From the NCBI GenBank assembly GCA_963922205.1, contig CAWUHX010000025.1, positions 1,178,001 through 1,242,000 on the forward strand: a stretch of 64,000 nt of DNA, in the 5' to 3' direction. The notes beneath the pieces are model-generated. The model did not search any database, had not been told where the DNA came from, and saw only the letters and a list, made by a program, of their open reading frames with translations. Shown piece after piece: positions 43,186 through 48,494 of the stretch (positions within the stretch are counted from its first letter, which is position 1; each line of letters opens with the position of its first letter). Origin of the DNA: Romanomermis culicivorax (Eukaryota > Nematoda > Enoplea > Mermithida > Mermithidae). A program made the translations under genes and the position numbers.

Positions 43186-43306
43186 ATGGGAAAAGGCGCG
43201 CGGAACCGCCAACAAGCTCCGACGCGCGAGTGGTCGCACACAGAGCGCCACGTCGAATATGGCAGGGCCCAGCACCGCCAAGATAATCGTTTTTTCTTCA
43301 TCGACG
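43186..43306 (+). CDS. ORF2 of element B, exon 1
   Basis: ATG 43186 opens a basic, Arg/Gln-rich 40-codon exon (MGKGARNRQQAPTREW...) ending RFFFID plus one base at the consensus donor GACG/GTAAGT (43306/43307). Joining to the acceptor TTATGTTTAG at 43989 preserves phase and leads directly into the exonuclease-like domain. The GC content is much higher than that of the flanking spacer and intron, as expected for coding sequence. The basic start may be a nucleic-acid-binding or nuclear-targeting segment. Confidence 0.6.
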
Positions 43307-43989
43307 GTAAGTTTCGAACTTATTTTTATCAAATATTCTTGGAAAACGCAGGTAATGCCCAGAAGTCACTGGAAGACCAGCTCGGCGCCCCAAAGGGCAG
43401 ACGAGGTTAGAACTTAGAGGGAACGAAAAATGGGAGTACTGAGAAGCCGAAGCTCGAAGCCAAGCAGGGAATTTCCAAACTTGGAAATATACCTGATACC
43501 ACCGAGAGCTATACGATTCAAGGGAAACCTAGAACCTTGGGTTCAGCCCGTTCGAAGTTTTATCATTCAAAAATTTATCAAAAAATTATTTATTTTCAAA
43601 TCAAATCAAATCATATCACTTTTTCGATACCAAATTCATTAAAAATTATCAATTTCGAGCGCTATAAAAATTGTAAATACAGCGCCATAAATGGAGCGTA
43701 GTTGGTCGCTCAAGCAGCTGGTCAGAGATTGGTGTCCGATCAAGTGGTGGACAATCGGATCAGGTCTACCCTCCCCAACATACAGAGGTAGCAAGGGTAA
43801 GATTTGGTAAGGTGTTAGTTGCCTACCAGCTCAATGTTTGTATATCAGTGGCTCACCTAACAACCTGCACTAAATTTAATTTCTGCGAAACTTAACCCGC
43901 TTGGTGTTGTGGTGCTGGTGTAGTATAGACCCGAAAATGCGCTGAAAAAAGGGGAATAAACACTAAAATTAATAGTATCTTATGTTTAG
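43307..43989 (+). other. Predicted intron in ORF2 of element B
   Basis: 683 bases, from GTAAGT to TTTAG, containing stops in all frames and AT-rich stretches. It is notable that a reverse-transcribed element keeps an intron: the genomic RNA must escape splicing here. Confidence 0.6.
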
Positions 43990-46900
43990 ATTATAACGTC
44001 AAAAGGGCCGTGCGAATCCATGAACTGGATCAGTGGTTTAAAGCCACATTTGGGTACTGGCCGGCTAATCCCAAGGAACCAAAATTGGTAGACATCGGGA
44101 AAGTCAGCCAGACACTCCACTTTATCCGAGAAGTATCAATCTTCAGAGGACAACCAGTTTGTGGATTCGATGTCGAAAAAGTCAACCAGGATAAAGTCGC
44201 TGCCTTGTTTAAAACGAGAGAGGTCGACAATCCTATGGGAAAGCAGTTTGCCTGATACGTGAGCTTCGCGTTAACAAATGGTCAAACCTACGTTATTGAT
44301 ACGACGTCGATGATGCTCAAAGAATGGACCAGCCTCCACGACTTTTTGAATTCCGACATGCTCTTCGCCGGATATTCCGTATTGGAGGACCTGGTAAGTA
44401 TCTATAACGTATGTGGTGCAGGGCGAGACAATAAGGACAGAGACAAAACTGTGCCCTTACGGGAATTTCTTAGAAAGACCAAGGGTCAATACTTTGATTT
44501 AGACCGTTTCGCTCTAACCATGGTAGGGGTAAACCTGGAGAAAAAATGTTTTCAGACAGGTATCTGTCCCGAAACCTTTCGGTTAAAGGGACTGTTCACG
44601 GAATTTTATCTGATAGACGTGGGCCCCTATCAGTATGACTTTTCATTAAAGGCGAACCGTGATTGGTTTGCCAAAAGAGGTATATTGCCGGAAGAGCTTA
44701 GATACGCCGCTCTAGACGCATATTATTCCTTATTGGTCATGTTTGCCGCGATCCACTATGGCATGGCCGATCAACTGCTTATGCAAATGCAGATTTTCGA
44801 CCATGACAAGGTTGATCCCAAACAGATCAACACAGTTGCCCTACATTTTTATCAACAATACTTAATGATTCCGGGCAACGTGAATAGAGAAATGGGGCTA
44901 GGTACCCCAGTCATGGAAACCGATCAGGTACAGCCGAATATGGTCTATCACATGATGAAATGTGAAATGTATAACTGTTGGGCTGTACAGATGCAGGGAA
45001 ATAACACCGGTTATTATACCGCGCCCACGGAGTGTAATCCAGTTCGTCCTCAGGGAGTTCAACTGCCAAGTGGCTTCTATCCACTGCTCCCAAGAGATAA
45101 CAAACCGATGAAGGACGATGGATACACTACAGATAGTGATCCCGACGAAATCCAGGACGTCCAGATACCAGACTGGGTTAATATTTCAAAGGATATCTTG
45201 GAAAATCTCAAGTCAGGTGGAACCTATTGGGATTTAGACGGAAAAATTTCTTTGACTTTGTATGAAAACACCAAGCTATACTGGCAACAGGCCGGGAAGC
45301 CCGATCAAATACCTGAAGAGGTGTTTTCCGCAAACAACCACTACCCAGTGGGTATCGAGGGTCATAGACAGGCCTATAAGACCAATTTTTATACGCCAAA
45401 CTTGGCAAAAATTTCAGGTATGTTAGATGAGCGAAACTTTGCGGAGTTAGAGGTCATCTGTAAATTTATGCCATTGGCTTATCATTTGGCATGGCCGCAC
45501 TCGAGAGCGGAGTGCGATTACGAAACTAGCGCTCTGCTGAACTATAACTTCTTAAACAGTTATACCAGAGAAGGACAGGAGATGATAAAGCGAATGTCCT
45601 GGAAGTCAGGCGACCACCTGGCTTATTATTTAGAGTTAGCAGCAACGCTACCGCCGTCGGAACCTCGCTTTCCATCTAAAAAAGGGGTATACGCGTGGCA
45701 AAATCGGTTCGGATTTGTCCCCATACGATTTCGAGAAGCCGAGGAAATTTTGCAAATCGGCGACGACAAATCGTTATTGAAGGACGGAGCCTACAAGGTA
45801 AACCCTTACTTTTATGTAACTTTTTACTACGTAGGCTTCGAGACTTTGACGCCGGGACTGCGGTATCCGATGACGGAAGACGCATCGCCGACCGATTACC
45901 CAATTACGTACGCACCGAGAAATCCGCTGGAGCTCAGACCGGAGTTTGTTAGCAAAAGCTTCCGGGAGAGAACAATTGCTTCGGAGATGCCCGGGTATAC
46001 ACTAACATATACCCCAGCCGGTGAGTTAATATCTAAGGTACCGGTAAATCGTCCCTCTACTTCCCAAACGGCGCAAGCCGGAGGGACGGGACAGGTTAAA
46101 ACGCAGCCGCAAGCGCCAGCGCCAGTGGTCAAAGCTACACCAGCTTTGGACACTGCTGCTACGCAGGCAGCTGCAGTAATAGTCGTGGTGCCGCCGCCAA
46201 CGCAACCAGCGGTGGCACAGCCGACTCAAGTACCTCAAATACAGCAACCGGCCGAGCCTGAGCCAGAGGTTGTCACCATTATGCAGTCTGTACCTCCGGC
46301 ACCAGCTGTGTTACCAGCTAAAGTAAAACAGCTCTTGCCGAAGATACGAAATTCAGACTCTGAGTCCAGTTCAGAGGAGGATGTTGAAGAAGAAGAAGAA
46401 GATGAAATTCTGGAATCTGAGGGCCAGACATCAGAAAATAAGGATGTGATGGAGGCCAAGACTCAGAAACAGGCTATTGAGGAGGAGAAAATCCAGACTC
46501 AAATTGATGAAGCAGTTACTAAAATGTCGGGAATCGATGTCAGACTGGAAAAGATGCAGGAAGCATCCCAGGAGATACCTGTGAAGGCCAAAGATCCTAA
46601 GGATCATGATAAACCAGCGAAGCACGAGGCCCTACAGGCCAAAATCCAAGAACAGAAAAGGCTGACGCAGCAGGAATTCCTGCGTCAGAGGGCAATCCAA
46701 AGGAAGCTGAAGGAGCAGGCATTAGCCGATGACAGCTCAGATTCAGCTATTGCAGCAACAGAGCTGATGAAGAGGGGAAGAATTGCCGAGGAAGGTATTC
46801 CTGGAATTTATTCCCCAGATAAGGTTCAGCAGATGTTAGCTGAAGGTATGTCGGAAAAATTTATCCGACACTTGGCCAAGGAAAAGGTAAGGCGCAGAAA

Positions 46901-48494
46901 GAGGATAGGTAAGGCCAGACGACGCAGACTTGCAGCTCAAGATCAGCAGCAACAAGGAGCGGCCACCACCGGTTCCGAGAACGACGCCTACGATACGGCC
47001 GAGGAAACCACGACCCCACAATATTCGACGAGTCAAAAGTCGAGAACGGAGACTTCGAAAAGTCAGACGAGAACGGAGACTGCAAAAAGTCAGACGTGAA
47101 CGGAGACCTCCAAAGGCCAGACGAAATCGGATAGGACAACAGGGTCCACTGCAACAATTTCGTACACTCAGACACGAATGGTATCAAAAACCGGCGGAGA
47201 GGTTAGTACTTCATCTGGCAAGAGCAAATCTGTGCCCTCCAGCTATACCGCAAGAAGTAGCAAACCTGCGGGAAGCGTATTGGTGAAGCCCGATCTTGAA
47301 TCGGAGGAAAAGTTGATCAAGAAGGTCAAACTGAATGTGGTAGCTAATAGACCCGAAAGGGAGCCACAGCAGTTTGTCACTCCTGGTCAATTAGCTGAAA
47401 CTCTGATTGATTATTGGGAGTGGCAACGGGAACAAAGGCGCTTAATTGGACCGATCTCATTCGAAAATCCAGAGGTCGCCAATTATTTCGCCTTTGATCG
47501 CCAAGAACGGCCGATCATTTACAGAATGGTCAATGACACTATGGCCGAAATTCATGAAAATTACTGCCAGCAATTTGAAATGCAGGGCGGATTTATGTTT
47601 GACGGAGAGCGCATCCCTGAGGAAATCTGGGAATGGATCATTTTAATTCTTATTCCCAGATGGCTTCATGACTATGATGCCTCAGACGTTTTTACGGCCA
47701 TTAGGTATGTGACCCTAATGATCTTTCTACAGTTGGACTTCGCTCCAATCACGCCAACGGCAATTGGTAGGTGGTATGCCCAGGCGTGTTCGTTTGCAAA
47801 CAGACAACTAGTCATTGAGGCCCAGGGAAACCGTGTAGACGATGTCTACATTGCAGCCTTTAATCAATATATTTTTATGGGCTCGCAAAGGTTAAACCAG
47901 ATGGGTGTTAAGAGGAAGGCACCAGGCGATGACAGATCGCAAGCTGATAAATATCAGCGAATGGCTGCCAAGAGCCCAAGTAAGTTTAAAGTGCCTAGAC
48001 TCCCTCCGGCTAAGAAACAACCGCCGACGATACAACAATCATGGGCTACGACCAGCCAGAGGTCATATAGTGAAGCTGCTAGCACTTCTTACAAAAGTCC
48101 GCTTTCTCGGTCAAAATCAATTTCATCAAAATCTCTCAACTCAACTTTCCGGACTCAAAAACCACAACGCAGCAGCTCCACTAGCAGTGGTCAAAGGCAG
48201 CAGGGGAGAGACGATATGTTCTCAAACCCGGCCCTGTACAGGGCTAGACCAGTATATGACCAAGGTCAAGCCAGAGGAGGCTTCAGAGGGCGCCCTCAGC
48301 GACCTTACAGAGGCCAACCCGGCCAAAAGTTTTTTTTTCTACCTCCCGTAGGTCGGTTTCGACGCGCGAGGGATGTTGGGCACCCTGTTGATGCCAATTC
48401 GTGTGGGGAAATCGACATGCAAATCGACGAAATGGACGACCAGCGGCGTAGACATTTGCATAGAAATGGAGCGCCAAAGAAAGACCGAAAGTGA
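43990..48494 (+). pseudogene. ORF2 exon 2: DEDDy exonuclease-like polyprotein, two in-frame TGAs
   Basis: About 1,500 codons in one frame with TGA at 44253-44255 and 47097-47099. The N-terminal domain looks like an RNase D/WRN-type 3'-5' exonuclease: motif I VCGFDVEKV (DxE, D at 44169), motif II FAGYSVLEDL, motif III RYAALDAYYSLLV (YxxxD). The first TGA falls between motifs I and II, where element A has Cys. A middle domain (45480-45960, NRFGFVPIRF) is shared with element A. Then come a Pro/Ala-rich linker, an acidic SDSESSSEEDVEEEEEDE run, a coiled basic region with RRRKR and RRRR, a Thr/Ser/Gln repeat containing the second TGA, a conserved tryptophan-rich domain (47390-47900) and an RG-rich tail that runs 121 bases into the 3' LTR. 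Likely a proofreading or RNA/DNA-trimming enzyme plus a nucleic-acid-binding particle protein; this role is inferred. Confidence 0.7.

What the first reader, a model, noticed from the sequence alone, without database searches (positions are those of the whole stretch)
43186..48494. A Ty3/gypsy element encodes a DEDDy 3'-5' exonuclease-like protein in a second ORF
Seen: downstream of an intact pol, one frame carries VCGFDVEKV (DxE), FAGYSVLEDL (motif II Asp) and RYAALDAYYSLLV (YxxxD) in the order and spacing of RNase D/WRN/EXD-type exonucleases. It is followed by a long disordered, acidic and basic region and a conserved tryptophan-rich C-terminal domain. Known: LTR retrotransposons normally carry gag, pol and sometimes env or a chromodomain. 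I am not aware of a described gypsy lineage with this enzyme. Inference: the enzyme could proofread or trim reverse-transcription products, or degrade host RNA. This is the best candidate here for an undescribed system.
Basis: partly seen in the sequence, partly recalled or inferred. Interest (0 to 1): 0.88.

Follow-up and report, generated by a model that had tools for sequence, protein, structure and literature searches.

The report
Retrotransposon carrying an RNA-trimming exonuclease gene
A virus-like jumping gene in this unidentified, probably animal, genome carries after its usual genes a broken extra gene related to enzymes that chew nucleic acids from the 3' end; it probably once trimmed RNA ends for the element, and cargo of the same kind has already been described in rotifer retrotransposons.

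Summary
A 13.8-kb LTR element (LTRs 35218-35831 and 48374-48988, 97%; 4-bp target duplication) has an open pol and, downstream, a third gene in the env position. The catalytic residues of a DEDDy 3'-5' exonuclease are present in order (DxE 44169-44177, Asp 44388-44390, Tyr/Asp 44703/44715), but an in-frame TGA splits DxE from the rest and a second TGA lies at 47097. The piece after the first TGA ranks first of 1114 six-frame pieces of the window against a DEDDy profile (E 8.4e-5, third profile tried) and matches by hhalign (P 9.5e-6). Pfam, PDB sequences and a 5.8-billion-protein search found nothing. New here: a second, older gypsy element in the window (10738-23615, minus strand), in the same pol clade, has traces of the same third gene in collinear order, without DxE. 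The gene is probably expressed from a spliced RNA (in-frame GT-AG join). The claim of novelty fails in kind: DEDDy ORF3s in bdelloid rotifer LTR elements were published in 2017. This lineage differs by lacking their dUTPase; its ORF3 ends in a long RGG-tailed extension. Likely role, untested: trimming RNA 3' ends.

The parts
35218..35831 (+). 5' LTR of element 1, 614 bp, TG..CA
   Evidence: BLASTN self-match 97.2%; exact ends
48374..48988 (+). 3' LTR of element 1, 615 bp; contains the last 40 codons of ORF3
35214..35217 (+). target-site duplication ACAA, left copy (right copy 48989-48992)
   Evidence: flanks joined match the Penelope-like copy near 32590 at 56 of 56 bases
36432..37931 (+). gag-like ORF, 500 aa
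   Evidence: PF03732 E 0.0013, below its cutoff
37935..42764 (+). pol, 1609 aa, open: PR, RT, RNase H, integrase, GPF motif; CX2HX4HX4C finger at its N terminus; no dUTPase match
   Evidence: Pfam; motif scan
43186..43306 (+). likely first exon of ORF3 (ATG; GTAAGT donor at 43307)
   Evidence: in-frame join to 43990; splicing not tested
43990..48494 (+). ORF3 main exon, broken by TGA at 44253 and 47097
44157..44183 (+). Exo I, VCGFDVEKV (D 44169-44171, E 44175-44177)
   Evidence: hhalign puts it on the DxE column, P 0.049
44253..44255 (+). in-frame TGA between Exo I and Exo II
44256..44738 (+). rest of the DEDDy exonuclease domain
   Evidence: hmmsearch E 8.4e-5, rank 1 of 1114; hhalign P 9.5e-6
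44370..44396 (+). Exo II, GYSVLEDLV (D 44388-44390)
   Evidence: aligned with the family Asp
44658..44738 (+). Exo III, RDW...LRYAALDAYYSLLV (Y 44703-44705, D 44715-44717)
46374..46406 (+). acidic run in the low-complexity linker
47397..47822 (+). tryptophan-rich C-terminal domain, unknown (approximate limits)
   Evidence: no Pfam match at its cutoff; composition
48273..48317 (+). RGG/RGR-rich tail
10738..23615 (-). element 2: older gypsy element, LTRs 10738-11236 and 23096-23615 (86%), pol matches 16737-20170
12714..15142 (-). decayed ORF3 of element 2, matches collinear with element 1's; Exo II and Exo III residues kept, DxE site reads GFGTK (14940-14957, placed by spacing)

Best explanation
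The third gene of this LTR retrotransposon is a broken relative of DEDDy 3'-5' exonucleases, probably made from a spliced RNA and likely to have trimmed RNA 3' ends for the element when intact. Shown: position after pol, catalytic residues, profile-level relationship, two in-frame stops, and collinear matches to the gene in a second gypsy element of the same pol clade. Predicted: the 683-base intron that joins a short first exon to the exonuclease exon in frame. Inferred: the exonuclease sits at the N terminus of a protein of about 1,540 codons whose linkers and RGG tail hold it on the element's RNA, where it would trim 3' ends. The gene appears to be an inherited part of this lineage, since both elements have it, and not a one-off capture. 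This copy cannot make the full protein unless its stops are read through.
For: Rank 1 of 1114 pieces against a DEDDy profile, E 8.4e-5, with element 2's piece second, E 0.055. First 200 residues of the piece: 24.8 bits; 0 of the 4289 of 5000 shuffles with a reported score reach it. hhalign P 9.5e-6, probability 82.7; element 2 piece P 2e-4. tblastn of the piece against element 2's downstream region: E 5.8e-6 with BLOSUM45, 6.1e-4 for the best match with BLOSUM62, composition correction off. With the 1014 pieces outside the ORF3 region as queries: for the DxE part rank 1 is element 2's -14960-15142 (E 7.8e-5 per query); for the main part rank 1 is -14044-14505 (3.6e-5), rank 2 -14709-15047 (0.0011), rank 4 -13143-13856 (0.0027); for the last part rank 2, after the element's own LTR, is -12714-13004 (0.0014). 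Given 1014 queries only the two at E below 1e-4 stand clear of chance alone; the rest count by collinear order. RT-piece tree: elements 1, 2 and P0001 together, 100/94, 117 rows, 100 columns. No 19-residue stretch of the three ORF3 pieces exceeds hydropathy 1.6 (highest 1.50), so no membrane span is predicted. RGG/RGR tail. MUT-7/Nibbler EXO domains are 3'-5' exoribonucleases, Nibbler's specific for single-stranded RNA (PMC11347159, passages).
Against: No Pfam match at E<=10 for the exonuclease pieces, no PDB sequence match for the piece after the stop, no homologue of it in two whole-database searches. The supporting profile was the third tried; two narrower ones put the piece 7th and 4th of 1114, not significant. 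The DxE piece alone is not significant: 740 of 4586 scored shuffles do as well. Element 2 lacks DxE, which could mean decay or a catalytically dead family. The better fold model was led by known exonuclease rows and is modest (pLDDT 63.7; best Foldseek E 0.29). Substrate, splicing and activity are untested.
Confidence: 0.5

Rival explanations
1. The ORF3 protein is a DEDD-derived nucleic-acid-binding protein without catalysis, like EXD1 or Maelstrom, and serves as an RNA chaperone or packaging factor.
For: DxE site of element 2 reads GFGTK; RGG/RGR tail; PMC5408684 notes that Maelstrom and EXD1 are inactive DEDD derivatives that keep RNA binding (passages).
Against: All catalytic residues are present in element 1; element 2 is an old copy with 86% LTRs and many stops, so its loss may be plain decay.
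Confidence: 0.2
2. The exonuclease acts on DNA, trimming or proofreading reverse transcripts, as WRN or polymerase exonuclease domains do.
For: The DEDDy family includes DNA enzymes; WRN and DNA polymerase I exonucleases are among the PDB relatives of the references used and in the fold list. Dada DNA transposons carry a DEDDy exonuclease thought to process cleaved 3' ends (PMC3706591, passages).
Against: The gene is separate from pol; among 15 single references the mosquito Nibbler RNA exonuclease scores best, 14.9 bits against at most 4.6, though only its Exo III stretch is in register.
Confidence: 0.15
3. ORF3 is an env-like or structural gene and its DEDD resemblance is chance.
For: Env position; likely spliced expression as in env genes; no curated-model match for the exonuclease pieces.
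Against: No predicted membrane span; profile and hhalign significance; two elements agree.
Confidence: 0.07
4. TGA is read as an amino acid, so ORF3 is intact.
For: Both interruptions in ORF3, and the one between gag and pol, are TGA.
Against: The Penelope-like copy next door has an in-frame TGA where another copy of the same element reads an amino acid; pol and ORF3 themselves end in TGA.
Confidence: 0.05

Closest known systems
Bdelloid rotifer Juno and Vesta LTR retrotransposons with DEDDy ORF3 (PMC5408684)
   Same: Gypsy-like LTR element, TG..CA LTRs, PR-RT-RH-IN pol, DEDDy exonuclease in a separate third ORF after pol; that paper says ORF3s are typically expressed from spliced messages.
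   Different: Juno, Vesta and TelKA pols carry a dUTPase between PR and RT; none matched here. Their gags, all but Vesta1b, have a CX2CX4HX4C knuckle; none here, only a CX2HX4HX4C in pol. LTRs there 159-551 bp, here 614-615. Relationship of the ORF3 sequences could not be tested: no bdelloid sequence was at hand.
MUT-7/Nibbler family EXO domains (7jw2, 7jw6; PMC11347159)
   Same: DEDDy motifs; the Exo III stretch LRYAALDAF/Y is nearly the same; best single reference and top Foldseek row, E 0.29, not significant.
   Different: Only Exo III is in register; Pfam saw no further domain of that family in ORF3; found in a retrotransposon.
Terminons (Athena Penelope-like elements) with DEDDy ORFs (PMC5408684, PMC6431247, passages)
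   Same: Retroelements with DEDDy exonuclease cargo.
   Different: Penelope-type RT and telomeric; the carrier here is an LTR element, merely inserted in a Penelope-like element.
Dada DNA transposons with a DEDDy exonuclease domain (PMC3706591, passages)
   Same: Transposable element carrying a DEDDy domain with its catalytic residues.
   Different: DNA transposon; the domain lies inside the transposase.
Errantivirus-type env third genes (recalled)
   Same: Position after pol and likely spliced expression.
   Different: No predicted membrane span and exonuclease-like sequence.

Membership tests
DEDDy 3'-5' exonuclease superfamily | Exo I DxE in a hydrophobic strand | tested here: inconclusive
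   Residues present and aligned to the DxE column, P 0.049; not above shuffles by profile; absent in element 2.
DEDDy 3'-5' exonuclease superfamily | Exo II Asp | tested here: met
   Asp 44388-44390 aligned with the family Asp; kept in element 2.
DEDDy 3'-5' exonuclease superfamily | Exo III YxxxD | tested here: met
   RYAALDAYY; YAPLD in element 2.
DEDDy 3'-5' exonuclease superfamily | RNase H-like fold | tested here: inconclusive
DEDDy 3'-5' exonuclease superfamily | metal-dependent 3'-5' exonuclease activity | not testable with these tools
   needs an assay
Ty3/gypsy LTR retrotransposon | LTRs, target-site duplication, PR-RT-RH-IN order | tested here: met
Bdelloid Juno/Vesta DEDDy-ORF3 elements | dUTPase between PR and RT | tested here: not met
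   no dUTPase among Pfam matches of pol at E<=1; stated for all Juno, Vesta and TelKA members
Bdelloid Juno/Vesta DEDDy-ORF3 elements | ORF3 sequence groups with bdelloid DEDDy ORFs | not testable with these tools
   no bdelloid sequence was at hand
MUT-7/Nibbler family | closest sequence relationship over the EXO domain | tested here: inconclusive
   14.9 bits, 0 of 2000 shuffles, but the first aligned part is out of register; over the six-frame pieces rank 1 at E 0.047

The most novel reading that the evidence does not exclude
An LTR retrotransposon lineage carries its own Nibbler/MUT-7-like RNA 3' trimmer, inherited with pol, and uses it as counter-defence: it over-trims or destroys the host's small silencing RNAs loaded against the element, or frees the element's RNA from germ-granule processing.
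Probability: 0.1. Interest if true: 0.85.

Novelty: new variant of a known kind. Interest (0 to 1): 0.45.

Why it matters
Accessory enzymes in LTR retrotransposons are rare (recalled). A DEDDy exonuclease gene traced in two diverged members of a lineage without the rotifer dUTPase suggests that the association is wider or older than the bdelloid report, and makes it testable whether retroelements use a 3' exonuclease on their own RNA, on cDNA or on host small RNAs.

Tried and rejected
Searches without result: Pfam with the exonuclease pieces, PDB by sequence with the piece after the first stop, the whole protein database with the piece 44256-47096 (these need shared 5-residue words and a length band), viral contigs with that piece, pol and P0001, genome contigs with that piece. 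The window's own genome could not be searched: the genome search was busy in all 11 tries. The host stays unidentified; the mix of Penelope-like and gypsy elements suggests an animal, by inference.

Paper searches for other LTR elements with such an enzyme gave the bdelloid paper, two reviews that refer to the rotifer elements (PMC6431247, PMC5718144; passages and one section) and a DNA transposon family with a DEDDy domain (PMC3706591, passages). PMC11599104 holds the word exonuclease only in a reference title. The other hits were seen only as listings. The library holds open-licence papers only; two further searches failed on term format.
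Full report
What is there. Element 1 lies at 35218-48988 on the plus strand, 13,771 bp: LTRs of 614 and 615 bp, 97.2% alike, TG..CA ends, 4-bp duplication ACAA. It sits inside a Penelope-like element (RT by Pfam, GIY-YIG below cutoff); joining its flanks gives a stretch identical at 56 of 56 bases to another copy of that element near 32590. The gag-like ORF (36432-37931) and pol (37935-42764; protease, RT, RNase H, integrase) are recognised by Pfam, gag only below the cutoff. 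Downstream is a third gene. A short ORF from ATG 43186 reaches a GTAAGT donor (43307), and the sequence after the AG at 43988-43989 continues it in frame; this splice, over a 683-base intron, is predicted, not shown. The main exon runs to 48494, into the 3' LTR, and is interrupted by TGA at 44253 and 47097.

Is it a DEDDy exonuclease? The residues are there: D and E at 44169-44177, Asp at 44388-44390, Tyr and Asp at 44703 and 44715, 182 codons from first to last Asp. Curated libraries and sequence searches are silent. A 15-row profile built from RNase D, two NrnC chains, a diDNase ancestor, human and mouse WRN, EXD2, two Nibbler domains, WEX and five viral-contig relatives ranks the piece after the first TGA first among 1114 six-frame pieces of the window, E 8.4e-5, with the homologous piece of element 2 second, E 0.055. 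It was the third profile tried; the two before, without the eukaryotic members, ranked the piece 7th and 4th. hhalign against an 11-row alignment gives P 9.5e-6, probability 82.7. The DxE piece taken alone is weak (P 0.049; 740 of 4586 scored shuffles reach its profile score). The pieces were searched apart because the first TGA lies between them.

Second element. tblastn of pol against the window finds a diverged gypsy element on the minus strand (pol matches 16737-20170; 50% identity over the longest match) with LTRs at 10738-11236 and 23096-23615, 86% alike. Downstream of its pol, pieces match ORF3 in the same order. In a test with the 1014 pieces from outside the ORF3 region as queries, element 2 pieces take rank 1 for the DxE part (7.8e-5), ranks 1, 2 and 4 for the main part (3.6e-5, 0.0011, 0.0027) and rank 2 for the last part (0.0014), where rank 1 is element 1's own LTR; with so many queries only the two below 1e-4 stand clear of chance alone, and the weight lies in the common place and order. 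Exo II Asp and YxxxD are kept; the DxE site, placed by spacing, reads GFGTK. In a tree of an RT piece, elements 1, 2 and the metagenomic protein P0001 form one group (100/94, 117 rows); in a tree of an RNase H piece, element 2 groups with P0012 and the pair P0001 plus element 1 (99/94), with element 2 and P0012 on long branches. The third gene therefore looks inherited within this clade.

How it probably works. No membrane span is predicted (highest 19-residue hydropathy 1.50), which speaks against an envelope. The exonuclease is at the N terminus of a long protein with low-complexity linkers, a tryptophan-rich domain and an RGG/RGR tail. I infer an RNA-bound 3'-5' exonuclease that trimmed RNA 3' ends for the element. 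The best single reference of 15 is the mosquito Nibbler EXO domain (14.9 bits, 0 of 2000 shuffles); Drosophila Nibbler is specific for single-stranded RNA and trims piRNAs (PMC11347159, abstract and passages). But only the Exo III stretch is in register, so membership in that family is open.

What is known. Rodriguez et al. 2017 (PMC5408684; abstract, passages and section 3.1 seen) describe DEDDy ORF3s in bdelloid Juno and Vesta LTR elements, acquired at least twice, and in Athena elements, and suggest 3'-end processing of retrotransposon RNAs. A DNA transposon superfamily, Dada, also has members with a DEDDy domain (PMC3706591, passages). The present element is like the bdelloid ones in layout, but lacks the dUTPase that section 3.1 gives for all Juno, Vesta and TelKA families. 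Whether the ORF3s are related could not be tested. Hence a new variant of a known kind, of moderate interest.

Noticed in passing
31447-35217 and 48989-49818: Penelope-like elements (RT; weak GIY-YIG) in inverted and direct copies; element 1 is nested in one of them.
   Followed up: partly
36429-36431 and 37932-37934: The frame upstream of gag, gag and pol are one frame split by TAG and TGA; the TGA between gag and pol could be decay or a natural readthrough site.
   Followed up: no
55811-56308: ORF with an integrase core domain (PF00665, E 6.5e-11), perhaps of a Polinton-like or gypsy-type element.
   Followed up: no
5413-6153: PNMA/retrotransposon gag-like ORF next to a 12-copy array of a 64-bp repeat (4554-5352).
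   Followed up: no
51677-52155 and 58825-59376: Long tetranucleotide arrays, TTTC x 120 and TTCG x 138, 99% regular.
   Followed up: no
14469-14528: 26-bp unit in 2.3 tandem copies inside the decayed ORF3 of element 2.
   Followed up: no
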